From NCBI GenBank assembly GCA_030654805.1, contig JAURWR010000022.1, forward strand, positions 1 through 49,041: 49,041 bases of DNA, written 5' to 3'. Shown piece by piece: positions 674 through 38,647 of this stretch (position 1 is the stretch's first letter; each line of letters starts with the position of its first letter). The stretch comes from Burkholderiaceae bacterium. Its GTDB lineage: Bacteria; Pseudomonadota; Gammaproteobacteria; Burkholderiales; Burkholderiaceae_C. The translations under genes and the position numbers were made by a program. Under the pieces are notes generated by a model. That model searched no databases and was not told the origin of the DNA. It saw only the letters and a program-made list of their open reading frames with translations.

Positions 674-1011
674 CGGTGAGCTCTCCTTCTGGAAGGATCC
701 ACCGGGAAACCTCAACGCGGCGTACTTCACGGATTCTTCACGATAGCCATTTCCAGGACGTTGTACGGACATTTTGTGACTTCACCAAGGATCATATGTT
801 TCCGTATGAGAAATAACGTCTCGACAAGGGAAACTACCAATCTCTGCAAAGGATAAATTGAATAAACTTTCCAATGCCGAAAAGATGTTTCCTATGTAGA
901 AACTATTTTGGCAGCAGGTACTCAAGCGTTCAGAGAACGGTACGGTTCTCACTGTCTGGTCAAGTCGCTTGAATTTTTGCCCGAACCACTAACCATTTCA
1001 GAGACCATTTG
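674..1011 (+). promoter_or_regulatory. AT-richer leader region upstream of the porin
   Basis: These 338 bases hold no convincing gene on either strand. The stretch from about 780 to 1000 is clearly more AT-rich than its surroundings and contains three copies of the GTTTC-N7-GAAAC-type inverted repeat listed separately. I could not pick a convincing -35/-10 pair. It is the promoter and control region of the porin gene starting at 1012. Confidence 0.6.
798..903. promoter_or_regulatory. Three operator-like inverted repeats upstream of the porin
   Basis: The sites are 798-814 (GTTTC-N7-GAAAT), 867-883 (CTTTC-N7-GAAAA) and 887-903 (GTTTC-N7-GAAAC, perfect half-sites). The centres of the last two are 20 bp apart, about two helical turns, which would place two bound dimers on one face of the DNA. 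The same pattern recurs at 11163, 24685, 24746 and 38501, always in front of a gene. The spacing suits an IclR-family dimer. TTC-N7-GAA also satisfies the LysR T-N11-A pattern. Confidence 0.6.
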
Positions 1012-1998
1012 ATGAAGAAAACATTACTTAGCGTCGTGATCGCAACCTCTGCTTGCGCATCCTTTGCCCAGTCGTCGGTGACGATCTCTGGATCCATAGA
1101 CCTGGGGCTTTACAAGCCCTCTGGCACCAACGATGTCCGTCTGGATTCGGTGAATGCCAACAGCGCACTGCGGTTTTCCGGCTCCGAGGACCTCGGCGGT
1201 GGCTTGAGAGCCAACTTCATGCTGGACCAGCGCATCAGCCCGGAATCGGGTGGCGCGGATGGCAGCAACAACGGGCGACCCACCTTTCAGGGGGAAACCA
1301 CGGTGGGCCTGTCTGGTGGTTTCGGGTCCGTCAAGTTCGGGCGTGCGGTCACACCGGCAGGTGCACTGCTGTCGCTGGCCGACCCCTGGCGGAACACCCG
1401 GCTGGGAAGCGCCAGCGTGGCGGCAGCCTACTTCGTGAACGCCACCGCAGACACACGGGACGGCGCGGGTTTTGCACGCACGGACGGTATCTTCTACAGC
1501 TCTCCAGTCATGGGGGGCTTCAATCTGACGGCGGCGTATGGCCCCAAGACGACCGCCTCAGGCGGGACGCTGGTCCAAGGTCTGTCGTCCATCTTCGGTG
1601 TTTCTCTGTCCTATGCGAACGGTCCACTTGGCGGAACGGTGATCCTGGAAAACAACCGCGACAAGGGTGACGTCAGGGCGCTGTTCGGCAACTACGACTT
1701 TGGTGTGGCCAACGTTCGTGCAGGCTGGGGTGAATACAAGAACACCGAGAACGGGCCCAAGATCGCAAGCTGGGTGCTCAGCACCACGGTGCCGGTGAGT
1801 TCCGCCGTCAAGCTGTCAGCGGTTTACGGCAAGGAAGAAAACAAGACGACCAGTGCCACGACGATGGACAAGTTCGGTGTGGGTGCCGAATACGCGTTCA
1901 GCAAGCGCACCGGCCTCTACTTCACGGCGGGCCGCAACGACGCGGTGGCCACGGGTTCCAAGGTCAGCTGGGATCTCGGCCTCCGCCACACCTTCTGA
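1012..1998 (+). CDS. Outer-membrane porin (Gram-negative Porin_4 family)
   Basis: The 328-residue product has a cleavable signal peptide (MKKTLLSVVIATSACASFAQ, cut probably after A19). Next comes the family N-terminal strand, VTISGSIDLGLYK. The body is rich in alternating strands, with the signature GSEDLGGGLRANF. It ends in LGLRHTF, the terminal phenylalanine used for outer-membrane insertion. It is a trimeric 16-strand general porin of Burkholderiales type and would let small, often anionic, solutes into the periplasm. The start is the ATG at 1012; a TTG directly before it is also in frame. Three operator-like repeats lie upstream, and a rho-independent terminator follows at 2026-2060. Substrate specificity cannot be read from the sequence. 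Its place at the head of the cluster suggests it serves uptake of the cluster substrate. Confidence 0.95.
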   Translation: MKKTLLSVVIATSACASFAQSSVTISGSIDLGLYKPSGTNDVRLDSVNANSALRFSGSEDLGGGLRANFMLDQRISPESGGADGSNNGRPTFQGETTVGLSGGFGSVKFGRAVTPAGALLSLADPWRNTRLGSASVAAAYFVNATADTRDGAGFARTDGIFYSSPVMGGFNLTAAYGPKTTASGGTLVQGLSSIFGVSLSYANGPLGGTVILENNRDKGDVRALFGNYDFGVANVRAGWGEYKNTENGPKIASWVLSTTVPVSSAVKLSAVYGKEENKTTSATTMDKFGVGAEYAFSKRTGLYFTAGRNDAVATGSKVSWDLGLRHTF

Positions 1999-2025
1999 TT
2001 GTTTTTCCCAAGGTAGAAAGCATTT

Positions 2026-2060
2026 GGGCCAGGCCGGTGATCTGGTCGGGCCCTTTTTTT
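2026..2060 (+). terminator. Rho-independent terminator after the porin gene
   Basis: A GC-rich hairpin with outer arms GGGCC (2026-2030) and GGCCC (2049-2053) is followed directly by seven T residues (2054-2060). It lies 28 bases after the porin stop codon and before the ribosome-binding site of the next gene, so the flavoprotein gene at 2092 depends on read-through or on its own promoter. Confidence 0.75.
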
Positions 2061-10889: not shown

Positions 10890-11201
10890 GGTCTTGGTGG
10901 GTTGTTCAACGGGTGCGCCCATTGTTTCCGCCGGCCTGGCGGCGCGAAACGCTCGCCGAGGCACAGCTGCTGTGAACCCGGTTCATGGCAGGGGCCGGCG
11001 GAAGCGGCGGACCATCGTTGTGGTGGAACGGGTCGTGGGTGTCTCCAGGTGGGCTAGGCACGCGTGGCCGGTGGCGGGCCGGCGTGGGTGGGTGTTGCGA
11101 TGCGGGTTAACCCTGTGGGTTGTGGCGTGGTTTTTGCCGATAATTTCCCATAACAACACAAGGTTTCCCTTATAGAAACATTGTACTGAAATTGGAAGCG
11201 C
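10890..11201. promoter_or_regulatory. Divergent intergenic region between aldehyde dehydrogenase and GMC operons
   Basis: These 312 bases hold no convincing gene. The part from about 11130 to 11200 is AT-rich and contains a GATAAT at 11139-11144 and the operator-like repeat at 11163-11179. It should hold the promoters of the minus-strand operon starting at 10889 and of the plus-strand operon starting at 11202. I could not assign -35 elements with confidence. Confidence 0.5.
11163..11179. promoter_or_regulatory. Operator-like inverted repeat GTTTC-N7-GAAAC
   Basis: The half-sites are perfect (GTTTC at 11163-11167, GAAAC at 11175-11179) with spacer CCTTATA. The site ends 22 bases before the ATG of the GMC oxidoreductase, so binding would overlap or follow the transcription start, which suits repression. 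It is the same pattern as at 887-903. Confidence 0.62.
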
Positions 11202-12824
11202 ATGACCAGACAGGTTTACGACTACATCGTTGTGGGGGCCGGATCGGCGGGCTGCGTGCTCGCCAACCGGCTGAGCGCCGATCCGCGCCACAGAGTGCTG
11301 TTGCTGGAGGCGGGTGACGACAGCCACAGCCTCCTGCTGAAAGTGCCCAAGGGTTTCGGGCGCCTGATTCCCGACCCGACCCATGCCTGGCACTTCCCGG
11401 CCCAGGCCGACCCCGCGCTGGGCCGGCCGGAGCCCGAGGTCTGGGCGCGCGGCAAGGTGCTGGGCGGCTCGTCCTCAATCAACGGCATGATGTATTCGCG
11501 CGGTCACCCGGCCGACTACGACGCCTGGGCCGCGGCCGGCGCCACCGGCTGGAACTGGGCCAGCATGAAGGCCGCTTTCATGGCCATCGAAGACCACGAG
11601 CTCGGCGCCAACGCCCACCGGGGCGCGGGCGGCCCGGTGCACGTGAGCGTCGGCAAGCTGCGTTACCCGGTGGCCGACGCCATGATCGCGGCCGGCGAGC
11701 AGATGGGCCTGCCGCGCAAGCAAGACCTCAACGATGAGCACCACGAGGGCGTGGGCTATTTCCCCTACACAATCAAGAACGGCCGTCGAGTGAGTTCGGC
11801 CACCGCCTTCCTGGCGCCGGCGCGCCAGCGCCCCAATCTGCGCGTGGTCACGCGGGCCGCAGTTGATCGGGTGACGTTCGACGGCTCGCGCGCCAGCGGC
11901 GTGGTGGCCCGCGTGGACGGCCAGTTGACCGAGTTCCTGTGCCGGGGTGAGGTGATCCTGAGCGCCGGTGCGATCCTCTCGCCCAAGCTGCTGCTGCTGT
12001 CCGGCATCGGCCCGGGCGAGCAGCTGCAGGCGCTCGGCCTGCCGGTGGTGGCCGCCAGCCCGGACGTGGGCTCGCGCATGCTCGAACACCTGAGCTTTTC
12101 CATGCCACACCGGCTGCTCGGCGCGCGCGGCCTCAACCACCGGCTGCAGGGCCTGGGGCTGTGGGGCAGTGTGCTGCAATACGCCCTGTTGCGCAGCGGG
12201 CCGCTGGCCACCGGGCCGTTTGAGGTCGGCGCCTACGTGCGCACCGATCCGCGACTCAAGCGCCCCAATGCCCAGTTGTGCCTGAGCGCCTTCAGCATGG
12301 CGGCCGGCAACGACAACCGCGCGCGCTGGGTCGCGCTGGACAAGGAGCCTGGCATCACCATCTACAGCCAACTGGTGCAGCTCGGCAGCGAGGGCGCGTT
12401 GCGCCTGACCGCGCCCGATCCCGACGCGCCGCTGGACATCCGTCCGAACTGGCTCAGCACCACCGAGGACCAGGTCGCCGCCGTGGCCGTGATGCGCCTG
12501 ATGCGGCGCTTCATGCGCCAGGCTGCGCTGGCGCGCTACGTGGGTGACGAGCTGTTGCCCGGGCCGGCCTGCCAGAGCGACGCCGAATTGCTGGACGTGT
12601 TCCGCCGTCTCTCGCGCTGCGGCCTGCACGCGGTGGGCACCTGCCGCATGGGCGGCGACGAACGCTCGGTGGTCGACGCCCGGTTGCGCGTGCGTGGCGT
12701 GCAGGGGCTGCGGGTGGCCGATTGTTCGGTCATGCCCACGCTGATCAGTGGCAACACCAACGGACCCGCCATGGCACTGGGCTGGCGCGCGGCCGAACTC
12801 ATTCTGGAGGATTCCCATGCCTGA
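11202..12824 (+). CDS. GMC family oxidoreductase (choline-dehydrogenase-like), second copy
   Basis: The 540-residue flavoprotein has the FAD motif GAGSAG at residues 12-17. The GMC signature [20 protein letters not shown] begins near residue 82. The C-terminal catalytic pair lies in [10 protein letters not shown] (His) and [10 protein letters not shown] (Asn). It would oxidise an alcohol to a carbonyl. It is a paralogue of the protein encoded at 4862-6460, clearly diverged. It opens a three-gene operon: the VOC gene starts inside its last codons (8-base overlap), and the KstD-like gene follows with an ATGA overlap. An operator-like repeat lies just upstream, so it is probably induced with the porin and the Rieske operon. 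Confidence 0.93.
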
Positions 12825-24712: not shown

Positions 24713-24745
24713 GAAAAATAATAAAGCAACAAAAAAGAAAACAGT

Positions 24746-24762
24746 GTTTCCTAGCAAGATAC
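24746..24762. promoter_or_regulatory. Operator-like inverted repeat upstream of the amidohydrolase operon
   Basis: GTTTC-CTAGCAA-GATAC, the same pattern and spacing as the other sites. It ends 25 bases before the ATG at 24788. With the site at 24685-24701 it gives each of the two divergent operons one copy. Confidence 0.6.
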
Positions 24763-26155: not shown

Positions 26156-26163
26156 CCCCACCC

Positions 26164-26913
26164 ATGACACAGAAACTCGCACTCATCACTGGCGGCAGCA
26201 GCGGCATCGGCGCGGCCATCGCAGCCCAGGCCGACCGCGAGGGCTACCAGGTGGCCCTGATGGACACCAACGCCGAAGGCGTGCGCGCAGTGGCCGCGCG
26301 CATGAAAGAAGGCGTCGCCCTGGTCTGCGACATCACGGACGAAACCGCCGTCGAGGCCGCGTTGTCCACCCTTGGGCGCACGCCCGACCTGCTGGTCAAT
26401 AACGCGGGCATCGTGCGCTTCGAGTACATGCTGGACATGAGCGTGGAAACCTTCCGGCACATCCTCGATGTGGACCTGACCGGCGCCTTCGTGATGTCCC
26501 GTGCCGTGGGTCGCCGCCTGCGCGATGAAAAAAGGGGCGGCGCCATGGTCAACATCTCGTCGATCGGCGGCATCACCCCGAGCCTGGGTACCAACGCCTA
26601 TGCGGCCGCCAAGGGCGGCATGATCAAGCTGGCCGAGCTGATGGCGCTGGAATGGGGCCCGCTGGGCATTCGCGTCAACACCGTGTCGCCAGGTTTCATC
26701 GACGGCGGCATGAGTGCGGCTGTCTATGCAGACCCGCGCACGCGGGAGATCCGCAGCAATGCCGTCCCGCTCAAGCGGCTGGGGCTGGAGCAGGACATTG
26801 CCGAAGCGGTGATGTTCCTGGCCAGCGACCGCGCGGGTTACGTCAACGGCCACAACCTGGTGGTGGACGGCGGGCTGATCCACAGCGTGCTTTCACAGGT
26901 GCCGCGGGCATGA
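26164..26913 (+). CDS. SDR family oxidoreductase
   Basis: The 249-residue classical SDR has the cofactor motif TGGSSGIG, LLVNNAGIV, a catalytic serine in MVNISSIGG and the active-site pair YAAAKGG. It ends with NGHNLVVDGGLIHSV. It lies eight bases after the amidohydrolase and overlaps the ThuA-like gene by ATGA. A 3-oxoacyl/hydroxyacyl reductase or secondary alcohol dehydrogenase role is expected; the substrate is unknown. Confidence 0.93.
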   Translation: MTQKLALITGGSSGIGAAIAAQADREGYQVALMDTNAEGVRAVAARMKEGVALVCDITDETAVEAALSTLGRTPDLLVNNAGIVRFEYMLDMSVETFRHILDVDLTGAFVMSRAVGRRLRDEKRGGAMVNISSIGGITPSLGTNAYAAAKGGMIKLAELMALEWGPLGIRVNTVSPGFIDGGMSAAVYADPRTREIRSNAVPLKRLGLEQDIAEAVMFLASDRAGYVNGHNLVVDGGLIHSVLSQVPRA

Positions 26914-27677
26914 GCGCCATCCAACCGATCTCAAACGAACTCAGCCCCTCGCCGCGCCGCGCGGAGGGTGGGCCCGTGAGCCAGCGCAACCTGATCCTCA
27001 TCGGTGGCCTTTACCACGACTTCGAACCCAGCGCCCAGACACTGGCCGGCATCCTGGGCGAGGTGGGCATACACAGCGACATCACCAGCGACATCGACGC
27101 CGGTCTGGCGGACCTGGACGCCTACGACCTGCTGACGGTCTACGCGCTGCGCTGGACCATGCCGCAGGAGAAGTTTGCCGCCCAGCGCGAGCGCTGGGCG
27201 TTCAGCCTGGGCGACGCGCAGCGCGCCGCCATCGAGCGCCACCTTGCCGCTGGGCGCGGCCTGCTGGTGCTGCACACCGGCGCGATCTGCTTTGACGACT
27301 GGCCGCGCTGGCGCGAGCTGGTGGGTGCGGGCTGGACCTGGGGGCACTCGTTCCACCCGCCCCACGGCCTGGTCAACGTGCGCCCCAGCGCTGTGTCACA
27401 CCCCATTACCGAAGGCCTGGAGGCGTTCGACTTCGACGACGAGGCCTACACCCAGATGGACTTGGCGCCCGGCCTGCAGCCACTGGCCCAGGTCAAGGCG
27501 GCCGCGCAGGACAGCTGGTCGCCCTGCCTGTGGGCGCGCGACGTCGGACCGGCCCGCATGGTGTTCGATGCCCTCGGCCACGACAGCGCCTCCTTCAACC
27601 ACCCGACGCACCGCCAGATCGTGCAGCGCGCTGCGCTCTGGACCCTGAAACAAACCCTGACAACTTCCCGGCCCTGA
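26910..27677 (+). CDS. ThuA-like domain protein
   Basis: The protein has 255 residues from the ATG at 26910. An in-frame GTG at 26976 has a better ribosome-binding site (GGAGGG) and would remove 22 unconserved residues. The sequence follows the ThuA / class I glutamine-amidotransferase-like fold, with LILIGGLYHDFEPSAQ at the N-terminus, LLVLHTGAICFDDW in the middle and VSHPITEGLEAFDFDDEAYT, a family hallmark. ThuA proteins occur in sugar and polyol degradation but their reaction is mostly unknown. Here it is translationally coupled to an SDR inside an acyl-CoA operon, an unusual setting. Confidence 0.78.
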   Translation: MSAIQPISNELSPSPRRAEGGPVSQRNLILIGGLYHDFEPSAQTLAGILGEVGIHSDITSDIDAGLADLDAYDLLTVYALRWTMPQEKFAAQRERWAFSLGDAQRAAIERHLAAGRGLLVLHTGAICFDDWPRWRELVGAGWTWGHSFHPPHGLVNVRPSAVSHPITEGLEAFDFDDEAYTQMDLAPGLQPLAQVKAAAQDSWSPCLWARDVGPARMVFDALGHDSASFNHPTHRQIVQRAALWTLKQTLTTSRP

Positions 27678-27701
27678 GGGCCGGCAACCCAGAGAGACCC
27701 C

Positions 27702-28466
27702 ATGACGACCTTGCAAGGCAAATCCATTCTGGTCACCGGCGGTGGCAGCGGCATCGGCGAAGGCTGTGCACGCCACTTTGCGGCCTGTGGCGCCCGCGTG
27801 ACCATCAGTGGTCGGCGCCCGGAACGTATCCGCGCGGTGGCCGAATCCATCGGACCCGACTGCAGCTGGATCGCGGGCGACGTGACCAAGGCCGAAGACC
27901 GCCAGGCCATGCTGGAACAGGCCATCTCACACGGCGGTGGCCGCCTCGACTGCCTGGTCAACAACGCCGGCATCACCCACCACAGCGGGCTCATGAACGT
28001 GACCCCGCAGGCCCTGCACGACGTGCTGGAAGCCAACCTGGTGGCGCCCACGCTGTTCACCCAGGCCGCCGTACCGGCCCTGGAAGCCAGCCAGGGTTGC
28101 GTGATCTTCATCGGCTCGGTGCACACCCGCCTGGCTTTGCCTGGTCGCCTGGCCTACGCCGCCTCCAAGGGTGGCATCCAGACGCTGTCGCGTGTGCTGG
28201 CCGCCGAACTCGGTCCGTGCAAGATCCGCGTCAACTGCGTCATCCCTGGCGCGGTGGCCACCGAGATCAATGCCGCCGCCGCCAACCAGACGCCCGAAGA
28301 AGCCAAGGCCTTTTTCCAGGGTCTCGCGCACCTGCACCCGATCGGCCGCATTGGCGAGGCGGTGGACATCGCCCGCGCCATGGAATACCTGATCAACGCC
28401 GACTGGACCACCGGCGCGGTGCTCGACGTTGATGGCGGCATGGGCCTGGGCGTCACCCGCCTCTGA
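27702..28466 (+). CDS. SDR family oxidoreductase
   Basis: The 254-residue classical SDR has TGGGSGIG for cofactor binding, LVNNAGIT, a catalytic serine in IFIGSVHT and YAASKGG as active-site motif. The C-terminus AVLDVDGGMG is typical. It lies 24 bases after the ThuA-like gene with an AGAGAG site upstream. It is the second SDR of this operon and differs clearly from the one at 26164; two consecutive alcohol/ketone steps are plausible. Confidence 0.92.
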   Translation: MTTLQGKSILVTGGGSGIGEGCARHFAACGARVTISGRRPERIRAVAESIGPDCSWIAGDVTKAEDRQAMLEQAISHGGGRLDCLVNNAGITHHSGLMNVTPQALHDVLEANLVAPTLFTQAAVPALEASQGCVIFIGSVHTRLALPGRLAYAASKGGIQTLSRVLAAELGPCKIRVNCVIPGAVATEINAAAANQTPEEAKAFFQGLAHLHPIGRIGEAVDIARAMEYLINADWTTGAVLDVDGGMGLGVTRL

Positions 28467-28524
28467 ATCCGACAGACCACTCTCCCCGCATTTTTTCCAC
28501 CCACACCCCACTCACGGACACACC

Positions 28525-29673
28525 ATGGACAACGCCACCCTCAAGGGACAACTGCACGCCCCCGCCATCGGCACCGGCGCACTCGAAGAAGCTCGCGCCC
28601 TGCTGGGCATGCCCATCCGCGTCGAGCAATGGAACTACGAAGCCAGCCGCGACGCCATCCGCCACTACGCCTGGGGCCTGGGCGACGACAACCCGCTCTA
28701 CAGCGACCCGGCCTACGCCCAGGAAACGACCTGGGGCGGCATCATTGCGCCTCCCACCTTCTTCTTCGGCATCTGGGACGCGGTGGTGGCGCCGGGCTTG
28801 CCCGATGTGCAGTGGTATTACTCCGGCATCGACGCCGAGTTCCACCAGCCCATCCTGCGCGACGATGAAGTCACCGCCAGCGCCGAATACGTCGACGCAC
28901 AGCCGTTGAGCGGCAAGACCGTTTCCAACATGTTGGTGCAGACCGGTGACGTGCGCTACCACGACCAGCGCGGCACGCTGCTCACCCGCGTGCTCTCCCA
29001 CACCTTCCGCGTGGCGCGCCAGGGCGCCGAAGGGGGGCTGAAATACGCCCCGCGTGACAAACACGTGTACACCGCCGACGAACTCGCGGTGATCGTTGAC
29101 CGCCAACTGAACGAGTACCGCCGGGGCGCCGACGTCCTGTACTGGGACGACGTTGAAGTGGGCACCGTGCTGCCGGGCACCGTGCGCGGCCCGCTCAACC
29201 AGCAGGACATGACCGCCTACTACTGCGGCGCCGTGGGCACCTCGGGCTACAAGTCGACCAAGCTGCGCTGGAAGTACCGCGACTGGGCCATGAGCAGCCC
29301 GGAGAAACTGCCCAACAACTACGACAAGAGCTACTACGGTGCCGCCGTGCTGCCCAGCATCGGCCACCAGGACGCCAAGGTGGCGACAGAGGACCTGGGC
29401 ATGCCCGGCCCCTACGACAACGGCCCGCAGCGCATCGGCATGCTCACCACTTGTGTGACCAACTGGATCGGCGACCGCGGCTTTGTGCGCAAGCTCAGCG
29501 CCCGCCTGAAGTTGCCGGTGATCTTTGGCGATTGCACCTACACCTTTGGCAAGGTGATCGGCAAGCGCATGGAGGGCGAACAGGCACTGGTGGACTTTGA
29601 ACTCTGGGGTGAGAACCAGCTGGGGCAGGTGACGATCAAGGGATCCGCCACCGCCGAACTGCCACGCCGTTGA
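28525..29673 (+). CDS. MaoC / FAS1-type dehydratase domain protein (double hotdog)
   Basis: The 382-residue protein has an N-terminal MaoC_dehydrat_N-like hotdog. It carries IRHYAWGLGDDNPLYSDP and GGIIAPPTFFFGIWD, which are the hydratase-2 substrate positions, then a linker and a second hotdog half (DDVEVGTVLPGTVRG). The expected activity is hydration or dehydration of an enoyl-CoA or related thioester. The start at 28525 is the first ATG after the previous gene, 58 bases on. It is followed by the ADP-forming acyl-CoA synthetase, consistent with action on a CoA thioester. It could instead bind a non-CoA substrate. Confidence 0.85.
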   Translation: MDNATLKGQLHAPAIGTGALEEARALLGMPIRVEQWNYEASRDAIRHYAWGLGDDNPLYSDPAYAQETTWGGIIAPPTFFFGIWDAVVAPGLPDVQWYYSGIDAEFHQPILRDDEVTASAEYVDAQPLSGKTVSNMLVQTGDVRYHDQRGTLLTRVLSHTFRVARQGAEGGLKYAPRDKHVYTADELAVIVDRQLNEYRRGADVLYWDDVEVGTVLPGTVRGPLNQQDMTAYYCGAVGTSGYKSTKLRWKYRDWAMSSPEKLPNNYDKSYYGAAVLPSIGHQDAKVATEDLGMPGPYDNGPQRIGMLTTCVTNWIGDRGFVRKLSARLKLPVIFGDCTYTFGKVIGKRMEGEQALVDFELWGENQLGQVTIKGSATAELPRR

Positions 29674-29695
29674 ACCACCTGAGAGTACCCTGCCC

Positions 29696-31768
29696 ATGTC
29701 TTCGCTGTCCCGACTGATCAACCCCTCCAGCATCGCCCTGATCGGCGCCTCGCCCGATCAGGCCAAACTGGCCGCCCGTCCGCTGCAGTATCTGCAACGC
29801 TATGGCTATCAGGGGCGCATCTACCCGGTGAACCCCAAGCACGCCAGCATCGAGGGGGTGCCTTGCGTGCCCAGCATTGCTGACCTGCCTCGGGATGTCG
29901 ATCTCGCACTCATCCTGTTGCCGGCGGCCGGCGTGGCCGATGCGCTGTCGCAGTGCGCTGCTCGCGGCGTGGCCAGCGCGATTTCGATTGCCGGTGGTTT
30001 CGCCGAGGCCGGCGCAGCAGATGAACAGCAACGGCTCACCGACATTTGCGACAGCCAGGGCATCCGCCTGATCGGGCCCAACTGTGTCGGCCTGCTGCAC
30101 CCTGCCAAGGGCGTCACGGCCACCTTTTCCAGCGAACTGCGCAACCGGATGCCGCGCCCAGGCAAGGTGGCCCTGTTCACCCAGTCCGGGGCGCTGGGCA
30201 ACGCCATGCTGCAGAGCTTCAACGATCTCGACATCGGGCTGGCCTACTGGGTGTCCACCGGCAACGAAGCCGATGTGGGCCTGCTGGACCTGCTGGAGCA
30301 CGCACTGGACGATCCCGAGGTCGAGATGGTGGCGATGTATGTGGAGGGGCTCAAGCATGGCAGCCGCCTGCTGGAGCTGGGGCGCCGGGCGCGGGCGGCG
30401 GGCAAGGCCGTGATCGTGCTGCGGGCCGGCAAGTCCCAACTGGGGCGTGCCGCGGCAGTCTCCCACACCGGCAAGCTGGCCGGTGCCTGGAAGGTCTGGA
30501 GCGATGTGGCGCGTCAGTCCGGCGTGATCAACGTCGATTCCCTGGACGATCTGCTGGACCTGGCGCTGCTGTTTGACCGCCATGGCGACCCCTCGCGCCT
30601 GCGGGCCAAGGGGCTGGGCGTCTTGACGGTGTCGGGCGGCATGGGGGTCCTGATCTCGGACGCTGCGGCCCAGGCCGGTTTGCAGATACCGGCCTTCAGC
30701 GAGCAGACCCAGGCCACGCTGCGCAGCGTATTGCCCGAGCAGATGACCGTGGCCAACCCAGTCGACACCGCGCTGTTCACCGACGAGCAGGGCTACGCGC
30801 TGTGTGCGGAAGCGGTGCTGAACGACCCGCAGATCGGCGTGCTGCTGCTGGTGCTGACCCGCCTGGCCCACGACTACACCGCGCTGGTGCCCTGGCTCGA
30901 AAAACTCAGTGTCCAGGCCCATTCGATGGGCAAGCGGGTGGCGGTGTCGTACCTGTCGTCTTCTGATCCCTTGTTACCGGAAGACCGCCAGCGGCTGATG
31001 CAGGCAGGTGGACTGGCCCTGTCCACCCCCGAACGCATCGTGGTGGCGCTGGGGCATGCCTTGCAGGCAGCGACTGGTGACATGGATCCGACCGATGCGG
31101 TGCCAGCGACACCCAGCCGCAACGCCGCCGAGTTCCTGCTCAACGCCGGTATTCCCCAGGTGCCCGAGGGCGTATTCAACGACGCCGATGCCGCGGTGGC
31201 GTTTGCCGACGCGCAGGGCTACCCGGTGGTGTTGAAGGTGGTCTCGCCCGACATCGCGCACAAGAGTGAAGCCGGTGGGGTGGCCCTGAACATCCCGGAT
31301 AGCGATGCCCTGCGCAGCGCCTGGACGGGCATGGTCGGGTCTGTGACCGCTCACGCCCCCGCCGCGTCCATCACGGGCTATTCGGTGCAACCCATGTTGC
31401 GTGGCGGCTTCGAGCTCATCGTCGGTTGTTCGACCGATCCGGAGCTCGGCCGCGTGCTGATGATCGGTGCAGGCGGCATCTGGGCCGAGGTGCTGGACGA
31501 TGTGCGTTTCCTCGCGCTGCCAACCACCGAGGCGGAGATCACCACCGCGCTGCAAAGTCTGCGGATCGCGCCCATCCTCAGCGGCGCACGGGGCCAGGCG
31601 TGTCTGGACGTGCCGGCCGCAGCCCAGTCCATTCAACGGCTGGGGCGGCAGTTCCTGGCCGACCCGTGGGTCCTGGAGGTTGACCTCAATCCTGTGCTTG
31701 TGCGTCCGACTGGCCAGGGTGTGGTGGCTCTGGACGTGTTGGTGGTACCTTCTGAACCAGCGCAATAA
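29696..31768 (+). CDS. Acyl-CoA synthetase, ADP-forming (acetate-CoA ligase family)
   Basis: The 690-residue protein contains all parts of the single-chain NDP-forming acyl-CoA synthetases. First is a CoA-binding Rossmann domain (SSIALIGASPDQAK, GPNCVGLLHP). Next are flavodoxin-like succinyl-CoA-ligase domains, with the phosphorylated histidine in AVSHTGKLAG. Last is a C-terminal ATP-grasp domain (VVLKVVSPDIAHKSEAGGV). It would activate a carboxylic acid to its CoA ester with ATP. It lies 22 bases after the dehydratase gene and 10 bases before the IclR gene. The substrate acid is unknown; feruloyl-type and short-chain acids are used by relatives. Confidence 0.93.
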   Translation: MSSLSRLINPSSIALIGASPDQAKLAARPLQYLQRYGYQGRIYPVNPKHASIEGVPCVPSIADLPRDVDLALILLPAAGVADALSQCAARGVASAISIAGGFAEAGAADEQQRLTDICDSQGIRLIGPNCVGLLHPAKGVTATFSSELRNRMPRPGKVALFTQSGALGNAMLQSFNDLDIGLAYWVSTGNEADVGLLDLLEHALDDPEVEMVAMYVEGLKHGSRLLELGRRARAAGKAVIVLRAGKSQLGRAAAVSHTGKLAGAWKVWSDVARQSGVINVDSLDDLLDLALLFDRHGDPSRLRAKGLGVLTVSGGMGVLISDAAAQAGLQIPAFSEQTQATLRSVLPEQMTVANPVDTALFTDEQGYALCAEAVLNDPQIGVLLLVLTRLAHDYTALVPWLEKLSVQAHSMGKRVAVSYLSSSDPLLPEDRQRLMQAGGLALSTPERIVVALGHALQAATGDMDPTDAVPATPSRNAAEFLLNAGIPQVPEGVFNDADAAVAFADAQGYPVVLKVVSPDIAHKSEAGGVALNIPDSDALRSAWTGMVGSVTAHAPAASITGYSVQPMLRGGFELIVGCSTDPELGRVLMIGAGGIWAEVLDDVRFLALPTTEAEITTALQSLRIAPILSGARGQACLDVPAAAQSIQRLGRQFLADPWVLEVDLNPVLVRPTGQGVVALDVLVVPSEPAQ

Positions 31769-31778
31769 TGGAGGCATC

Positions 31779-32651
31779 ATGACCAAGAAAAATCCTGTCA
31801 CACCCGATAGCGAGGCCGAAACTTCGGCCACCGAGTCCATGAAGTCCCTTCGCAGCGGGCTGCGCGTGTTGCTGGAGTTCGAACACGATCAGCGCGACTT
31901 CGGCGTCACCGATCTGGCGCAGCGATGTGGTTTGTCCAAGAGTCAGGTGTCCAAGATCCTCAGTGCGCTGGTCGACAGCGGCCTGGTGGTGCAGGACCCC
32001 GTCACCCGCACTTACTCCATCGGCAAACGCTGCTTTGTGCTGGGTTCGCGCTTCACCAACTTTGATCGCTTGTGCCAGGCGGCAACCCCGGTGATGCGCG
32101 AGTTGCTCAACCGCACCGGTCACAGCGTGCGCCTGTCGGTGCCTGACCATGACCAGTCGCTTTACCTGATCGGCCTGGAAGGCCCGCACTTCATGGACAC
32201 GGGGTGGCGCTCAGGCAGCGGTGTCCCCTACGGTGTGTCCTCCGTCGGCCGTGTCATGATGGCTTACATGGACCCGCAGGAGCGTGAGCGCTTGCTGAAT
32301 TTGCCTTTGCCAGCACTCACATCCGAATCCGTAGGTGACCGCGCCACCGTGGCCAGGCTGGTGGATGAAGCGCGCGCATGTGGCTACAGTGTGCAGCGCA
32401 ACGAGACCACGCTCGGCCTGGGCGTGATTTCGGTGCCCCTGTTCAGGAACGGGCAAGAAATGGTCGGTGCGCTCGGGCTGGCGTTCCCTTCACATCTGGT
32501 GCTCGACAACGACGAGCCACCCCTGATTCGAGCCCTCCAAGACGCGGCGCGCAGCATTTCGCAGCGCATGGGCTGCTCGGTCTATCCCTACGGTGCTGCC
32601 TCGGCGCGCGTCACCAGCCCGGCGGCTGTTGCGTCGGTGGCTGCGAGCTGA
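31779..32651 (+). CDS. IclR family transcriptional regulator
   Basis: The 290-residue protein has an N-terminal winged helix-turn-helix (about 28-90, with FGVTDLAQRCGLSKSQVSKIL) and a C-terminal GAF-like effector domain (about 105-270). The C-terminal tail is rich in alanine and serine. The ATG at 31779 follows AATGGAGG, and the gap to the synthetase gene is 10 bases, so it is co-transcribed with the operon it probably controls. IclR dimers bind short inverted repeats. The GTTTC-N7-GAWAC sites in front of the porin, GMC, Rieske, amidohydrolase and Bug genes are the most likely targets, giving feedback control if it represses. This pairing is inference. Confidence 0.92.
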   Translation: MTKKNPVTPDSEAETSATESMKSLRSGLRVLLEFEHDQRDFGVTDLAQRCGLSKSQVSKILSALVDSGLVVQDPVTRTYSIGKRCFVLGSRFTNFDRLCQAATPVMRELLNRTGHSVRLSVPDHDQSLYLIGLEGPHFMDTGWRSGSGVPYGVSSVGRVMMAYMDPQERERLLNLPLPALTSESVGDRATVARLVDEARACGYSVQRNETTLGLGVISVPLFRNGQEMVGALGLAFPSHLVLDNDEPPLIRALQDAARSISQRMGCSVYPYGAASARVTSPAAVASVAAS

Positions 32652-33752: not shown

Positions 33753-34940
33753 TCAGGGGGCCATCACGAAGTTGCCATTCTTGACTTGCAGCACGTGCAT
33801 GCCGACAAAAGGAACCCTCTCGGCATCGCGGGTGTATTTGCCGTTGCCCACCAGCACCGGAATGTCCTTGGCCTTGGCCATGCCTTGGCGAACGGTGTCC
33901 CGCGTGGGATTCGGGCCCGCCAGCTTGATGGCGTCCATGGCCACCCGCATGGAGCTGTACCCCCAAGCGGCCCAGTTGTCGGGTTCGGCCTTGTATTTCG
34001 CCTTGTAGGCAGCGGAAAACGCGCGGCTGGCTTCGTCGTTGGTACCCGGCAGCCAGTCACCGATCAGGTAGACCCCTTCGACGGCCTTGCCCCCGCGCTC
34101 CAGAAACTGGGGAGATGAAAGAGCGTTGTGGCCCAAGATGCGGGTCTTGGGGTCCAGACCGGCCTGGCGCAACTGAATCACGATATTGGCCGCCTGGGGC
34201 GCTGAGGCGGAGATGAATACGCAGTCGGCATCGCGGCTGACGACCTTGGTGGCCAGTGCGCTGAAGTCCGCATCGGTGCCCTTGATGGCCTCGACCGAAC
34301 CGATCTTGGTGCCTTTGGACTTGACCACGCTCTCGAAGACCTTCTGCATGGTCACGTAGATCTCCACATCGTGGATACCGATCACCGTGCAGTCCTTGAT
34401 CTTGAGCTTGTCCACCGCGTAGTTGGCGATGTAGGGCAAGGTGATCTCACCTGGCTGGGTGAGGGTGTAAGACCAGGGTCCCGCCTTGAGCACGTCCATC
34501 GAATTCGACTGCGTCTGCATCGGAAACTTCAGCGTGTTGGCGGCGTTGGCCGCAGCCACGGCCACGGCGCCACTGGTTGGACCCATAAACATCAGGATGT
34601 TGGGGTCTGCCGCATAACGCTGCATCAGCGAGAGGGTCTGTGAACGGTCGTTGGCGTCATCCGCCGTGATCACCTTGATGGTGTTGCCTGGACCCAGCTC
34701 TTGTTTGCGGTTGATTTCTTCGGCGGCCAGGGCCGCCCCGTTGGCGACCGGCATGCCGATGAAGGCCGCTCCGCCGGTGAGGGCTTGCACCACCACCACG
34801 CTGTATTCGGCCGCCTGGGCCGTCAGTGCGGTGGCGCTCAGCACTGTGGTGGCCAGGGCGATCCGCCCCAGACGCCATTGGGCGCTGCGGCCGGGTGTTC
34901 CTGTCTGAGGGGAAACGGTGCACTTGAATGAAGGGGACAT
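33753..34940 (-). CDS. ABC transporter periplasmic binding protein (branched-chain amino acid type, LivK-like)
   Basis: The 395-residue protein has an extended signal peptide with a hydrophobic core (GRIALATTVLSATALTAQAA, cleavage near residue 43) and the Peripla_BP_6 fold, including YSVVVVQALTGGAAFIGMPVANGAALAAEEIN. In catabolic clusters this family often binds aromatic or alicyclic acids rather than amino acids. It is the last gene of the ABC operon, 69 bases downstream of the LivF-type ATPase. The start at 34940 has GAGG upstream, and an upstream in-frame ATG is not needed. Confidence 0.93.
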   Translation of the reverse strand: MSPSFKCTVSPQTGTPGRSAQWRLGRIALATTVLSATALTAQAAEYSVVVVQALTGGAAFIGMPVANGAALAAEEINRKQELGPGNTIKVITADDANDRSQTLSLMQRYAADPNILMFMGPTSGAVAVAAANAANTLKFPMQTQSNSMDVLKAGPWSYTLTQPGEITLPYIANYAVDKLKIKDCTVIGIHDVEIYVTMQKVFESVVKSKGTKIGSVEAIKGTDADFSALATKVVSRDADCVFISASAPQAANIVIQLRQAGLDPKTRILGHNALSSPQFLERGGKAVEGVYLIGDWLPGTNDEASRAFSAAYKAKYKAEPDNWAAWGYSSMRVAMDAIKLAGPNPTRDTVRQGMAKAKDIPVLVGNGKYTRDAERVPFVGMHVLQVKNGNFVMAP

Positions 34941-35009
34941 GTGGTACCTCGGGGTGGAAAAGAGATGCACGGGAGCCGTGCGGACGGAAAAAAATGGAAG
35001 GCCGGAACT

Positions 35010-35732
35010 TCAGTCGACAAGGGCCGATTCGCCCGTGCCCAGGTAGTGCTCGATCACGGATGGGTCGTGCAGCAGTTGCTGGCTTTGGCCGTGCTGCGCG
35101 ATCAGGCCGCGTTCGAGCACGTAGGCCCGCTGGGTGGCTGCCAGGGCGCGGCGGGCGTTCTGCTCGACCAGCACGATGGTCAAACCGTCGCGGTGGAGTT
35201 TGAGCAGGGCATCGAAGACCTGATGGGTCAGCAGGGGCGACAGGCCCAGGCTGGGTTCGTCGAGCAACAGCACGCGCGGGCTGCCCATCAGGGCGCGGCC
35301 GATGGCCATCATCTGCTGCTGCCCGCCTGAGAGCGTGCCAGCGGCCTGCTGCATGCGTTCGGCCAGGATGGGGAACAGCGTGACCACCTTGTCGATCTCG
35401 TACAAGGCTTTGCGGGTGCCCCGTGCGAGCGCACCGAGCATCAGGTTTTCCTGCACCGTCATGTCGGCCAGCACCTGGCGGCCCTCGGGCACATGCAACA
35501 GGCCGGCCCGCGCAATCACGTGCGGGGGCAGGCGGGTGATGTCCTGACCCGCGAAGCGGATCTGGCCGGCGGTGGCGCGGACCACGCCGCTCATGCAGTT
35601 GAGCAGGGTGGACTTGCCGGCGCCGTTGGCTCCAATGATGGCGACCATCTCGCCTTCGGGCACGACAATGTCCACGCCCTTGAGCGCTTCAATACCGCGG
35701 TAGCCGGCCTTGAGTTGTTTGATTTCCAGCAT
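35010..35732 (-). CDS. ABC transporter ATP-binding protein, LivF type
   Basis: The 240-residue ATPase has Walker A GANGAGKST, the signature LSGGQQQMMAIGRAL and Walker B VLLLDEPSLGLSP, followed by the H-loop region LVEQNARRAL. The length and the N-terminus MLEIKQLKAGYRGIEALKGV are those of LivF. It is one base away from the LivG-type gene upstream. It works with LivG-, LivH- and LivM-type partners to drive uptake of the ligand brought by the binding protein encoded at 33753. Confidence 0.95.
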   Translation of the reverse strand: MLEIKQLKAGYRGIEALKGVDIVVPEGEMVAIIGANGAGKSTLLNCMSGVVRATAGQIRFAGQDITRLPPHVIARAGLLHVPEGRQVLADMTVQENLMLGALARGTRKALYEIDKVVTLFPILAERMQQAAGTLSGGQQQMMAIGRALMGSPRVLLLDEPSLGLSPLLTHQVFDALLKLHRDGLTIVLVEQNARRALAATQRAYVLERGLIAQHGQSQQLLHDPSVIEHYLGTGESALVD

Positions 35733-35733
35733 C

Positions 35734-36489
35734 TCAGTCTCCCAGGTAGGCGGCGATCACGGCCGGGTCGCGCATCACTTCTTGTGGCGTGCCGTTGGCA
35801 ATCAGGCGACCGCTGTCGAGCACGTGCACTTGTTCGCACAATTCGGACACGAAACGGGTGTTGTGTTCGATCACCAGCACCGCCATGCCTTCTTCGGCCA
35901 AGCGGGCGAAGATGTTGCCCAGCGCACTGGCCTCGACGTCGTTCATGCCGGCCACCGGTTCGTCCAGCAGCAGCACCGCGGGGTCGCTGGCGACAGCGCG
36001 CATCATCTCGACGCGACGCTGGAAACCGTAGGCCAGGCCGCCCGCAGGGACGTGTTCGTATGACGACATGTCAAAGCGCGCCAGCAAGGCGCGGCCGCGT
36101 TCGCGCAGTTCGCGGCTTTCGCGCCGCGAAGAGGGCAATCCCAGCAGGCTGGCCAGCAGGGAGCTTTTTTCGAGCCGATAGAAACCGATCACCACGTTGT
36201 CGAGCACCGAGGCTTCGGGCAGCAGCCGGATATTCTGGAAGGTGCGGGCCACGCCGCGGCGTGCCACGGCGTCGGCCGGCTCGGTGGAGATCGCCTCACC
36301 ATGCAGGCGCACCTCACCGCTGGTCAGACCGAGCACGCCCGCGATCAGGTTGACCAGCGTGCTTTTGCCCGAACCGTTGGGTCCAATAAGCCCGGTGACC
36401 TTGCCGGCGGGCACCTGGAAGCTCACGCCGTCGACCGCCTTGACGCCACCAAAATGGCGCCTCACGTCCTGCAACTCAAGCGCGACCAT
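35734..36489 (-). CDS. ABC transporter ATP-binding protein, LivG type
   Basis: The 251-residue ATPase has Walker A GPNGSGKSTLVNLIAG, Walker B AVLLLDEPVAGMN and the LivG-type extension before the signature (NVVIGFYRLEKSSLLASLLG). The signature region reads LAYGFQRRVEMMRAV instead of the commoner LSYGQQRRLEIARAL, a modest variation. Its start overlaps the end of the LivM-type gene by 14 bases, which shows tight coupling. Confidence 0.95.
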   Translation of the reverse strand: MVALELQDVRRHFGGVKAVDGVSFQVPAGKVTGLIGPNGSGKSTLVNLIAGVLGLTSGEVRLHGEAISTEPADAVARRGVARTFQNIRLLPEASVLDNVVIGFYRLEKSSLLASLLGLPSSRRESRELRERGRALLARFDMSSYEHVPAGGLAYGFQRRVEMMRAVASDPAVLLLDEPVAGMNDVEASALGNIFARLAEEGMAVLVIEHNTRFVSELCEQVHVLDSGRLIANGTPQEVMRDPAVIAAYLGD

Positions 36490-37402
36490 AGGGCGCTCCT
36501 TTCGATTTTTTGGGTTCTGTGCCTTCTGCCAGAGGCAGGGCGGGCGGCGGAGATGTGCGCTGGGCGCGGCGATGTTTCAGCCAGGACAGGAAGGTATCGC
36601 CCAGGCCTTGTGGCGTGTACAGCACCACCAGCACCATGACAACGCCGACCACGACCATCCGGTACTCGGCAAGCGGTCGCGAGATCTCGGGCAGCAGAAT
36701 GACGACCGCCGAGCCGATGACCGGCCCGAGCAGCGAGCGTCGCCCGCCCAGAATGATCGCGGCCAGCGTGGTGACCATGAAGTTGAAGCCGAATTGGTGC
36801 GGCTCGACGCTGTAGGCGTACATCGACTGCAGCGCGCCGAACAGGCCGCCGATGAGCCCACTGACGATGAAGGCCAGAGTGTGTTGCCCACTCGAAGATA
36901 CGCCCAGACTGGCCGCCACATACTCGTCCTGGCGCAGCGCATCAAAACCTCGCCCGATGCGCGAGATCGACAAGGCGTGCAGCAGGTAGATCACCACAGC
37001 CACCGCCACCGCGATCTCGAAGGTGCCGACGTGTTTGGGGATGTTGTTGAATCCCACTGCGCCGCCGGTGAGCGGTTCGGCGTAGAGGGCGATCGCCACC
37101 ACCACCTCCACCAGCGCCAGCGTGGCGATGGCCTGGTAGACCCCACGCAGGCGTGCCAGCGGTATCGACACCAAGTAGCCCGCCACACCGCCGAGCACCG
37201 CGCCGAGAGGCATCGCTGCCAGCGGGGGCAGGCCTAGGTTTACAACCAGGATGGCGCAGCCATAGGCGCCCATGGCTGCGAACGCTGCCGAGGCCAGCGA
37301 GAACACCCCGCATCGCAACACGATCTGCTGGCTGTAGGCAAAGCCCAGCGTGAGCAGGAAGAAGTCGAAAACAGGCTGATTGGCCTTCAGAAAATCGATC
37401 AT
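36476..37402 (-). CDS. ABC transporter permease, LivM type
   Basis: The 308-residue inner-membrane protein has about nine or ten hydrophobic segments and the permease signature region LRQDEYVAASLGVSSSGQHT followed by FIVSGLIGGLFGAL. A basic, proline-rich tail ends the protein. The ATG at 37402 overlaps the LivH stop codon (ATGA). The subunit forms the translocation path with LivH. Confidence 0.94.
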   Translation of the reverse strand: MIDFLKANQPVFDFFLLTLGFAYSQQIVLRCGVFSLASAAFAAMGAYGCAILVVNLGLPPLAAMPLGAVLGGVAGYLVSIPLARLRGVYQAIATLALVEVVVAIALYAEPLTGGAVGFNNIPKHVGTFEIAVAVAVVIYLLHALSISRIGRGFDALRQDEYVAASLGVSSSGQHTLAFIVSGLIGGLFGALQSMYAYSVEPHQFGFNFMVTTLAAIILGGRRSLLGPVIGSAVVILLPEISRPLAEYRMVVVGVVMVLVVLYTPQGLGDTFLSWLKHRRAQRTSPPPALPLAEGTEPKKSKGAPYGRA

Positions 37403-38295
37403 TGCCGTCCCACTCCGGCGGGTGCGAGGGCGCCGCCAAACAAGCCATTCGGTTTGAAGATCAGCACCACGAACAGCATGGTGAAGATGAGGATGTCGCT
37501 CAGGCCGGGTGGCAGATAGGCAGCGCACAGCGCCTGACCCACGCCCAGCAGCAAACTGGCCACGACCGCGCCGCCCAGGTTGCCCAGGCCACCCAGCACC
37601 ACGACCACAAAGGCCTTGAGCATGTAGGGCTCACCCATCATGAACTGGATGGAATTGAAGGACAGGCCGATCATCACGCCGGCCAGTGCCGCCATCGCAC
37701 CGGCGATGAAAAAGGTCAGCATGAAGACCGAGCGCGCGTTGATGCCCAGCAGTGCTGATGCGCGCGGGTTGATCGCCACGGCGCGCACCTGGCGGCCGAA
37801 CGTGGTGCGTTGCAGGAACAGCGCCAGAAAGACCACCAACACCACGACCATGACCGTGATGGTGATCTGCAGCAGGGATATCCGCAAGCCCATGGCCCGG
37901 TAGAACTCGACCGGGAAGGTGTCGAACGGAAAGCTCAGCACCTTGGTCTGCGACAGCTTCTGGGCCATGCTGGTGAGGATCTGGCCGATACCGATCGAGA
38001 TGACCAGGGCTCCAAACTCAGCGTCCATCGGGCTGTACTTGCGCAGCTTCTGAAAGCCAAAACGATCGATCAGTACCGAAGCGAAACCACACACCACCAT
38101 GGCGATCAGCAGCGCCACCCAGAAGGGCAGGCCGGCCATAACGGCGTAATAAGCGATGAAGGCGCCCGACATGAAGATGGCGCCGTGTGCGAGGTTCAGC
38201 ACCTTCTGCACACCAAAGATGAGGTTGAAACCCAGCGCGAACAGGGCATAGATCGCGCCGGAAATCAGGCCGTTAAGGATTTGCTGGGCCAGCAT
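37399..38295 (-). CDS. ABC transporter permease, LivH type
   Basis: The 298-residue inner-membrane protein begins MLAQQILNGLISGAIYALFALGFNLIFG, the canonical LivH start, and contains the signature AINPRASALLGINARS. It is the first gene of the operon LivH-LivM-LivG-LivF-binding protein. Its promoter must lie in 38296-38647, which it shares with the divergent Bug gene. No operator-like repeat lies close to its start, so it may be controlled differently or by the more distant site at 38501. Confidence 0.95.
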   Translation of the reverse strand: MLAQQILNGLISGAIYALFALGFNLIFGVQKVLNLAHGAIFMSGAFIAYYAVMAGLPFWVALLIAMVVCGFASVLIDRFGFQKLRKYSPMDAEFGALVISIGIGQILTSMAQKLSQTKVLSFPFDTFPVEFYRAMGLRISLLQITITVMVVVLVVFLALFLQRTTFGRQVRAVAINPRASALLGINARSVFMLTFFIAGAMAALAGVMIGLSFNSIQFMMGEPYMLKAFVVVVLGGLGNLGGAVVASLLLGVGQALCAAYLPPGLSDILIFTMLFVVLIFKPNGLFGGALAPAGVGRQ

Positions 38296-38647
38296 GGTGT
38301 CAGGCCCGACCCGCTGACGCGTGTGTGCCGCCTAGGCGGGCGGATGTGGGCTTGGTGGTCGGTCGCCCGGATGCGCACGGGCGCTGACAGTGACTACCAC
38401 GCGTGTTCGATAAAATAGAAATTCTGTTACTCATCAAGAGGCTCCGGAATAAGTCGACTCAGACCACAGATCGATTCGACGCCTTGGTTAGACATCTACT
38501 GTTTCCTCTATGGATACTGAGTATCTATAATGGAGGAAAATAATCATCAGCAGGAACGCTGTGTTCTAGAATGTACCCCTGAGGCCGAATTTTCGTATTC
38601 GGGTTTTCCCCGGGCATGTCCAACCAGTGACTCTTTGAAGGAACGTT
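38296..38647. promoter_or_regulatory. Divergent promoter region between the ABC operon and the Bug gene
   Basis: These 352 bases hold no convincing gene. The part 38400-38545 is AT-rich. It contains a perfect TATAAT at 38526-38531, suitable as the -10 box for the Bug gene, and the operator-like repeat at 38501-38517 over the -35 and spacer region. No -35/-10 pair for the minus-strand operon could be assigned. Confidence 0.55.
38501..38517. promoter_or_regulatory. Operator-like inverted repeat upstream of the Bug gene
   Basis: GTTTC-CTCTATG-GATAC, the same half-sites and 7-base spacer as elsewhere in the window. It lies eight bases before a perfect TATAAT (38526-38531), thus over the -35/spacer region of the probable Bug promoter. 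A second, partial half-site GTATC follows at 38521. Confidence 0.6.

What the first reader, a model, noticed from the sequence alone, without database searches (positions are those of the whole stretch)
798..38517. A shared 17-bp operator links seven sites in front of five transcription units
Seen: GTTTC-N7-GAWAC or close variants at 798-814, 867-883, 887-903 (porin), 11163-11179 (GMC operon), 24685-24701 (Rieske operon), 24746-24762 (amidohydrolase operon) and 38501-38517 (Bug gene). All sites are intergenic and upstream of a gene; the N7 spacing is constant and five sites have at most one mismatch to GTTTC/GAAAC. Inference: one regulator coordinates outer-membrane entry, periplasmic binding and the first oxidative steps. 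The IclR protein at 31779 is the best candidate. TTC-N7-GAA also fits the LysR T-N11-A pattern, so the LysR at 7295 remains possible.
Basis: partly seen in the sequence, partly recalled or inferred. Interest (0 to 1): 0.82.

Follow-up and report, generated by a model that had tools for sequence, protein, structure and literature searches.

The report
Catabolic gene cluster's shared IclR operator
A short repeated DNA signal in front of the uptake and breakdown genes of one bacterial cluster is very probably the docking site of the cluster's own IclR-type regulator, a solid example of a known kind of bacterial gene switch.

Summary
All seven sites read as described; one more was missed (818-834). 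At <=1 mismatch to GTTTC-N7-GAAAC the window has 7 sites, all intergenic (500 shuffles of intergenic DNA: mean 0.14, max 2). Of 8 GTWTC-N7-GAWAC sites in the 3.87-Mb genome, 5 lie in this 1.27%.

The sites are arrays of alternating boxes: GTTTC-N7-GAAAC plus a further box 3 bp away, giving 20-bp tandems. 14 of 19 sites have the third box at gap 3, against 0-3 of 19 at other gaps 0-20. This is the published IclR "three-box/tandem" operator (PMC8222616).

Sites recur before related genes in 4 other genomes. An IclR ortholog (64-72%) occurs in 5 of 6 genomes carrying the Rieske gene; the LysR at 7295 in 0 of 6. IclR 31779 is therefore the best-supported reader. Two operators overlap -35/-10-like hexamers and IclR ends an operator-headed gene run, suggesting an autoregulated repressor of porin, importer, GMC, Rieske and amidohydrolase units. 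Binding, sign, effector and substrate are untested. New member of a known kind.

The parts
798..834 (.). operator array 1 of the porin promoter: GTTTCCGTATGAGAAAT-AAC-GTCTCGACAAGGGAAAC (two palindromes, 20-bp register)
   Evidence: a porin-family gene in R. lacus (L048:4200-5381, Porin_4 1.2e-36) also has a site upstream (L048:4056)
867..903 (.). operator array 2 of the porin promoter: weak 867-883 plus perfect 887-903, 20-bp register
   Evidence: best three-box hit of the own genome, 1 mismatch
1012..1998 (+). porin gene, followed on the same strand by the 3-ketosteroid-dehydrogenase-like FAD gene 2059-3753
   Evidence: Pfam Porin_4 5.6e-48; FAD gene
11155..11179 (.). operator between ALDH and GMC; perfect palindrome 11163-11179 plus weak third box (3 of 5)
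   Evidence: the GMC ortholog of R. lacus has three tandem sites at L048:3825/3845/3865
11202..15110 (+). GMC oxidoreductase, VOC protein, second 3-ketosteroid-dehydrogenase-like FAD gene (13326)
   Evidence: the R. lacus ortholog of 13326 has its own perfect site L049:10501
24685..24701 (.). operator toward the Rieske unit; overlaps the spacer and -10 of a sigma70-like promoter TTGACG-N17-GATACT (24712-24684, minus strand)
24738..24762 (.). three-box operator of the amidohydrolase-IclR unit, centre 34 bp before the start codon
   Evidence: counterparts L044:4762, L018:271, L063:19865, weaker L049:3952
22144..24582 (-). Rieske oxygenase, SnoaL-like protein, flavin reductase: start of the leftward run, followed by acyl-CoA dehydrogenase, APH-like protein and CoA transferase subunits down to 17652
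24788..32651 (+). amidohydrolase, SDR, ThuA-like, SDR, MaoC-like, CoA-ligase-like (Succ_CoA_lig + ATP-grasp), IclR: one run of same-strand genes (operon inferred)
   Evidence: same order in L016, L017, L061; L063 and L062 keep only part of it
31779..32651 (+). IclR-family regulator, last gene of the amidohydrolase run; proposed reader of the operators
   Evidence: Pfam HTH_IclR 2.4e-11 and IclR_C 1.5e-23; nearest NCBIfam models BhcR and PcaR/PcaU/PobR, below cut-offs
38501..38525 (.). three-box operator GTTTCCTCTATGGATAC-TGA-GTATC in the divergent gap between ABC importer and TctC/Bug gene; overlaps a sigma70-like TAGACA-N18-GATACT (38489-38518)
33753..38295 (-). branched-chain-type ABC importer genes (binding protein, two ATPases, two permeases); orthologs have sites upstream in R. 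lacus (L048:5612) and G437 (L063:11168)
38648..39622 (+). TctC/Bug periplasmic binding protein
   Evidence: Pfam TctC 3e-63

Best explanation
The repeated motif is the operator of the cluster's own IclR-family regulator (31779-32651). The reading unit is a 5-bp box, GTTTC in one direction and GAAAC in the other, set alternately at N7 and N3 so that like boxes recur every 20 bp, about two helical turns. One IclR dimer would hold the N7 palindrome and a second subunit pair would use the neighbouring box or palindrome on the same DNA face. Without inducer the protein most likely sits on or next to the core promoters and represses the porin, GMC, Rieske, amidohydrolase-IclR and importer/TctC units. 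A pathway intermediate would release it, so uptake and breakdown start together, and because IclR is the last gene of an operator-headed gene run it limits its own level. Shown: site positions, spacing rule, recurrence in relatives, co-occurrence with IclR but not LysR. Inferred: binding by IclR, operon structure, repression rather than activation, effector release, substrate.
For: Enrichment and intergenic confinement. Third box at gap 3 in 14 of 19 sites against 0-3 of 19 at other gaps 0-20; none of 5000 flank shuffles reached the observed mean. Gap histogram N7 15, N27 6, reverse N3 10, all other gaps at most 2 (the regions were picked for having an N7 site, so the N7 peak is by selection and N27 follows from N7 plus N3; only the N3 peak is free of it). 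Recurrence: amidohydrolase L044:4762, L018:271, L063:19865; FAD gene L049:10501; GMC L048:3825-3865; ABC L048:5612, L063:11168; FAD gene homologous to 2059 (76%) L047:5197+5217. Perfect GAAAC-N3-GTTTC pairs at the second position of the amidohydrolase/Rieske gap in G433 and G434. IclR ortholog in 5 of 6 genomes, LysR 7295 in 0 of 6. A 45% IclR relative on a Variovorax plasmid has tandem sites in the gap just upstream of its gene (L024:14900/14920); 52-54% paralogs in G435 and G437 have a three-box site some 6 kb from their gene, heading a TauD/MaoC-like gene run (L065:3586, L066:3357). Two operators overlap sigma70-like hexamers. The layout matches PMC8222616.
Against: No binding, footprint or expression data. 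Two of six window palindromes have no good third box (24685 and 11163 score 2 and 3 of 5). The Rieske promoters of L019 and L021 have no site although their genomes (G435, G437) have an IclR ortholog on another contig. R. lacus has only 2-mismatch pairs in the amidohydrolase/Rieske gap, no better by mismatch count than G436, in which no IclR ortholog was found, so that gap does not discriminate. A 38% relative (L067, Variovorax RA8 plasmid), the 56% paralog contig (L045) and 5 of 6 distant IclR loci (24-29%) have no strong site. Of 22 sites scoring >=16 in 359 kb of relatives' DNA, 10 lie before relatives of the window's units and 3 near IclR relatives, 9 elsewhere; 8 of the 22 are in stretches fetched because of a pattern hit. 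G433 has perfect sites on C114 and C594, contigs not orthologous to the window cluster. Inner letters differ from the published consensus. The promoter-like hexamers are expected 0.3-0.4 times by chance, and none on the gene's own strand was found at porin, GMC or amidohydrolase.
Confidence: 0.8

Rival explanations
1. The IclR protein reads the sites but activates, binding upstream of weak promoters and recruiting RNA polymerase with a pathway compound, as PcaU and PobR do (recalled).
For: Nearest NCBIfam models include the PcaR/PcaU/PobR group; the centres of 887 and 38501 lie about 117 and 139 bp before the porin and TctC start codons and 798/818 further out, and no promoter-like match lies over the porin sites.
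Against: At the Rieske and TctC promoters the operator overlaps the spacer and -10-like hexamer, and at the GMC and amidohydrolase genes its centre is 31-34 bp from the start codon, which points to blocking.
Confidence: 0.25
2. The LysR at 7295 reads the sites (TTC-N7-GAA fits T-N11-A).
For: The letters fit the loose LysR pattern; the gene lies leftward of the 11163 site.
Against: No ortholog at E<=1e-50 in 6 of 6 related genomes, 4 of which carry the sites before related genes; LysR does not predict the N3 box rule.
Confidence: 0.04
3. Another regulator outside the window (GntR, TetR or a second IclR) reads the sites.
For: G433, G435 and G437 hold a second IclR of 52-56% identity; two of the three (G435, G437) have a strong like site near it, the third (L045) only a weak one, so more than one protein may read this box.
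Against: In the window's genome only one IclR scores E<=1e-25 against 31779, and it is linked to the sites.
Confidence: 0.12
4. Chance AT-rich palindromes or a dispersed repeat.
For: At 2 mismatches the whole-window count is near chance.
Against: flanks differ between sites, only the boxes are shared.
Confidence: 0.02

Closest known systems
IclR-family three-box and tandem operators (Suvorova and Gelfand 2021, PMC8222616)
   Same: 17-bp GTTYC...GRAAC palindrome (their GTT-11-AAC subgroup), extra box giving the second consensus, tandem centres 18-22 nt apart, position close before start codons at some genes; their regulogs also hold AtoDA-type CoA transferases and Liv-type importers
   Different: inner RY-W3-RY letters are only partly met (R at position 6 in 1 of 6 window palindromes); whether this orthologous group is in their tables could not be checked
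PcaU / PobR of Acinetobacter baylyi
   Same: IclR-family regulator of a catabolic cluster, palindrome plus an extra half-site, the extra box needed for PcaU binding (as cited in PMC8222616; originals not seen)
   Different: box is GTTCG-type; substrate differs and the protein scores below the NCBIfam cut-off for that group
PheR of Sphingobium SHPJ-2 (PMC13273656, passages seen)
   Same: IclR-family repressor joining outer-membrane uptake with a catabolic operon (phnA1); protected region +23 to -21
   Different: core GCAACG, TonB-dependent receptors rather than porin, phenanthrene
IphR of Comamonas sp. E6
   Same: IclR-family regulator of Comamonas with a palindrome and an additional downstream half-site (Table 1 of PMC8222616)
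   Different: GTCTCATCAGAC and ATGGAC boxes, isophthalate

Membership tests
IclR-family regulator (protein 31779) | N-terminal HTH_IclR and C-terminal IclR_C domains | tested here: met
   Pfam 2.4e-11 and 1.5e-23, above cut-offs
IclR-family regulator (protein 31779) | member of a named subgroup (BhcR, PcaR/PcaU/PobR) | tested here: not met
   131 bits against cut-offs of 350 and 285
IclR three-box operator | outer boxes GTTYC / GRAAC at 17-nt total length | tested here: met
   two of six window palindromes exact, the others one box letter off
IclR three-box operator | third box in alternating direction at the second-consensus spacing (N3) | tested here: met
   14 of 19 sites; window alone 4 of 6
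IclR three-box operator | inner letters RY-W3-RY of the joint logo | tested here: inconclusive
   six window palindromes as printed: R at position 6 in 1 of 6, Y at 7 in 4 of 6, W3 complete in 3 of 6; the paper gives these as an average over groups
IclR tandem operator | site centres 18-22 nt apart | tested here: met
   798/818, 867/887, 38501/38521; L048:3825/3845/3865, L044:4762/4782; one member of each pair is weak in most
IclR tandem operator | bound by the IclR protein in vitro | not testable with these tools
   needs EMSA or footprint
LysR regulon (7295) | regulator conserved with the sites | tested here: not met
   0 of 6 genomes at E<=1e-50

The most novel reading that the evidence does not exclude
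The same three-box code is read by two IclR paralogs (orthologs of 31779 and a 52-56% group) that live together in some genomes (G433, G435, G437), so two catabolic modules may be wired together by operator cross-talk, switching an uncharacterised pathway for a cyclic oxo-compound that pairs a Rieske oxygenase with two 3-ketosteroid-dehydrogenase-like enzymes.
Probability: 0.25. Interest if true: 0.5.

Novelty: new member of a known kind. Interest (0 to 1): 0.36.

Why it matters
It turns an unannotated 40-kb catabolic region into a defined regulon with a named candidate regulator and a precise operator, so the pathway's gene set, its inducer and its importer can be tested together. The three-box arrays give good natural material to test the proposed alternative dimerisation of IclR proteins.

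Tried and rejected
The loose scan (<=2 mismatches over the whole window) was uninformative. The wider pattern GTDTC-N7-GAHAC is too common to use alone: 5-33 sites per genome in 40 genomes (the window's own and 39 relatives), no excess in the window's genome (18). LysR 7295 as reader: rejected on co-occurrence. Dispersed-repeat or chance origin: rejected. Substrate: not resolved. The Rieske protein's nearest solved relative is carnitine monooxygenase (weak); GMC's is a chloramphenicol-inactivating oxidoreductase in a broad family; the MaoC-like protein had none at E<=1e-5; the FAD genes resemble 3-ketosteroid and 4-oxocyclohexanecarboxylate dehydrogenases below cut-offs. Paper searches gave nothing on this particular regulon beyond the general IclR work (open-licence PMC papers only), which is no proof that it is unpublished.

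Selection notes. The 19 sites leave out second members of tandems (818, 867, L047:5217, L044:4782) and one near-copy (L066:3357); the R. lacus GMC/porin sites (L048:3825-4056) and the Variovorax site L024:14920 were found later and not added, L049:3952 (2 mismatches) was not included, and L046, L051, L011 and L050 sites were left out as unrelated or unseen at the time. The position-weight model was trained on six window sites. Three-box hits at <=2 mismatches in the own genome: 10, of which 7 in the window, but the four porin hits overlap in pairs, so as separate places it is 5 of 8; the P of 6e-12 printed for 7 of 10 is too strong.
Full report
CHECK. The seven sites exist as written, plus 818-834. 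At <=1 mismatch to GTTTC-N7-GAAAC there are 7 sites in the window, all intergenic and none in genes, although the intergenic DNA (gene limits hand-set) is only about 8% of the window; 500 dinucleotide shuffles of the intergenic segments gave mean 0.14, max 2. In the whole genome (3.87 Mb, 131 contigs) GTWTC-N7-GAWAC has 8 sites, 5 in this contig; the backwards control has 1. The pattern was fitted to these sites, so this enrichment is only part of the case.

ANATOMY. The N7 palindrome is not the whole operator. In 19 palindromes (6 window, 13 from other loci) a further box tends to lie exactly 3 bp outside it: 14 of 19 match 4-5 of 5 letters at gap 3, against 0-3 of 19 at every other gap from 0 to 20; 5000 flank shuffles gave at most 5 of 19. 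The other loci alone give 10 of 13 and the window alone 4 of 6. Across promoter regions the box spacings are N7 (15), N27 (6) and reverse N3 (10), all others at most 2 (regions chosen for having an N7 site). Boxes of one direction therefore recur every 20 bp. Tandem palindromes follow the same rule: 798/818, 867/887 and 38501/38521 in the window, and three in a row at L048:3825/3845/3865 in Rhodoferax lacus.

RELATIVES. One scan of the collection of 84,980 species genomes with the Rieske protein (close relatives only) gave 6 loci at 69-72% identity, titled Betaproteobacteria, Comamonadaceae or Rhodoferax. The gene block from Rieske to IclR is syntenic in R. lacus (L016) and in L017. Sites lie before orthologs of the amidohydrolase (L044:4762, L018:271, L063:19865; weaker L049:3952), the FAD dehydrogenase 13326 (L049:10501), GMC (L048:3825-3865), the ABC importer (L048:5612, L063:11168), the FAD gene homologous to 2059 (L047:5197 and 5217), and before a porin-family gene (L048:4056; Pfam). 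The window's FAD gene 13326 lies downstream of the GMC operator, while R. lacus gives it an operator of its own. Counting sites scoring >=16 in 359 kb of relatives' DNA: 22, of which 10 before relatives of the window's units, 3 near IclR relatives (L024, L065, L066), 1 upstream of an MFS gene beside the R. lacus cluster (L049:12495), 4 in unrelated importer clusters of G433 (L041, L042), 1 at L011 and 3 unassigned (L046, L050, L051) (several stretches were fetched because of a pattern hit).

WHICH REGULATOR. An IclR ortholog of 64-72% identity is in 5 of 6 of these genomes; the LysR at 7295 has none in 6 of 6 at E<=1e-50. Of the 5 IclR-bearing genomes, 4 show sites before related genes (G432, G433, G434, G437). 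In the fifth (G435) the fetched IclR contig is only 4.5 kb and reaches neither the amidohydrolase start nor the start of the ABC genes. G436, where no IclR ortholog was found, has only 2-mismatch pairs in the amidohydrolase/Rieske gap, but so has R. lacus, so that comparison does not discriminate. In a family-wide sample the IclR is found at E<=1e-50 in 2 of 399 genomes, the window's own and G359, whose contig C421 is that of L017. More distant IclR proteins: 52-54% paralogs have a three-box site about 6 kb away (L065:3586, L066:3357), the 56% one (L045) only a weak site; a 45% relative on a Variovorax plasmid has tandem sites in the gap just upstream of its gene (L024:14900/14920), a 38% one (L067) has none; of six loci with 24-29% relatives one (L011) has a strong site. 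SKSQVSK(I/V)L in the HTH region is exact in 5 of the 9 close proteins aligned (52-100%) and differs by one or two residues in the other 4; the 45% relative reads TMSHTSKIV.

AGAINST. The Rieske promoters of L019 and L021 have no site. G433 carries perfect three-box sites on contigs unrelated to the window cluster (C114, C594), whose reader is unknown. The inner letters depart from the published consensus. Nothing here shows binding.

MECHANISM. The Rieske operator overlaps TTGACG-N17-GATACT and the TctC operator overlaps TAGACA-N18-GATACT; in both, the GATAC box is part of the -10-like hexamer, which may explain why A is replaced by T there. These are consensus matches expected 0.3-0.4 times by chance. 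No match on the gene's own strand was found at the porin, GMC or amidohydrolase promoters; at GMC a leftward match TGGTCA-N17-TACAAT (11208-11180, expected 0.0) ends right at the operator and could serve the ALDH side. GMC and amidohydrolase sites centre 31 and 34 bp before the start codon, inside the -20 to -80 zone reported for most IclR sites; the porin and TctC sites lie further out. IclR ends the amidohydrolase gene run (24788-32651), so it is probably autoregulated.

KNOWN. Suvorova and Gelfand 2021 (PMC8222616: abstract, passages and part 1 of 2 of the Results seen) describe GTTYCRYW3RYGRAAC palindromes, three-box sites in 32 orthologous groups and tandem sites 18-22 nt apart in 94. The finding is a new regulon of that kind. 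PheR (PMC13273656; passages seen) shows an IclR-family repressor that joins outer-membrane uptake to a catabolic operon.

SETTING. Neither the IclR (14 same-genus genomes of 74-99% completeness, E<=1e-20) nor the Rieske gene (14 others of 15, E<=1e-60) is found elsewhere in the genus genomes held, and a 300-bp direct repeat (91%) spaced 40,155 bp apart brackets the region, so it is probably an acquired island (inference). The substrate is unknown.

Noticed in passing
1-300 and 40156-40455: 300-bp direct repeat, 91% identical, brackets the whole regulon (the first copy begins at the contig end); with absence of its IclR and Rieske genes from 14 same-genus genomes this suggests an acquired or recombined 40-kb island.
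   Followed up: partly
47155-47664: Short ORF with the arm DNA-binding domain of a phage/island-type integrase (Pfam Arm-DNA-bind_3), apparently only the N-terminal part.
   Followed up: no
L041:3074, 3260, 10152 and L042:3353: Four perfect palindromes in genome G433, all with a third box of 4-5 of 5 letters at gap 3, beside ABC importer and (L041) mandelate-racemase/enolase-superfamily genes unrelated to the window cluster; reader unknown.
   Followed up: partly
L011:21-37: GTATCTTTTAAAGAAAC-GAT-GTATC array about 1.5 kb before a distant (27-29%) IclR gene in another family of the order.
   Followed up: no
L049:12495-12511: Strong site with a perfect third box, some 300 bp upstream of an MFS transporter gene (L049:10576-12180) next to the R. 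lacus cluster; possibly a further uptake unit of the regulon.
   Followed up: partly
24304-24397: ARAGORN calls a tRNA-Cys (anticodon aca, 94 nt) inside the Rieske gene; probably a false call.
   Followed up: no
11202-12824: GMC protein's nearest solved structure by sequence is a chloramphenicol-inactivating oxidoreductase (8b7s, 1.3e-105); the family is broad, so no function is inferred.
   Followed up: no
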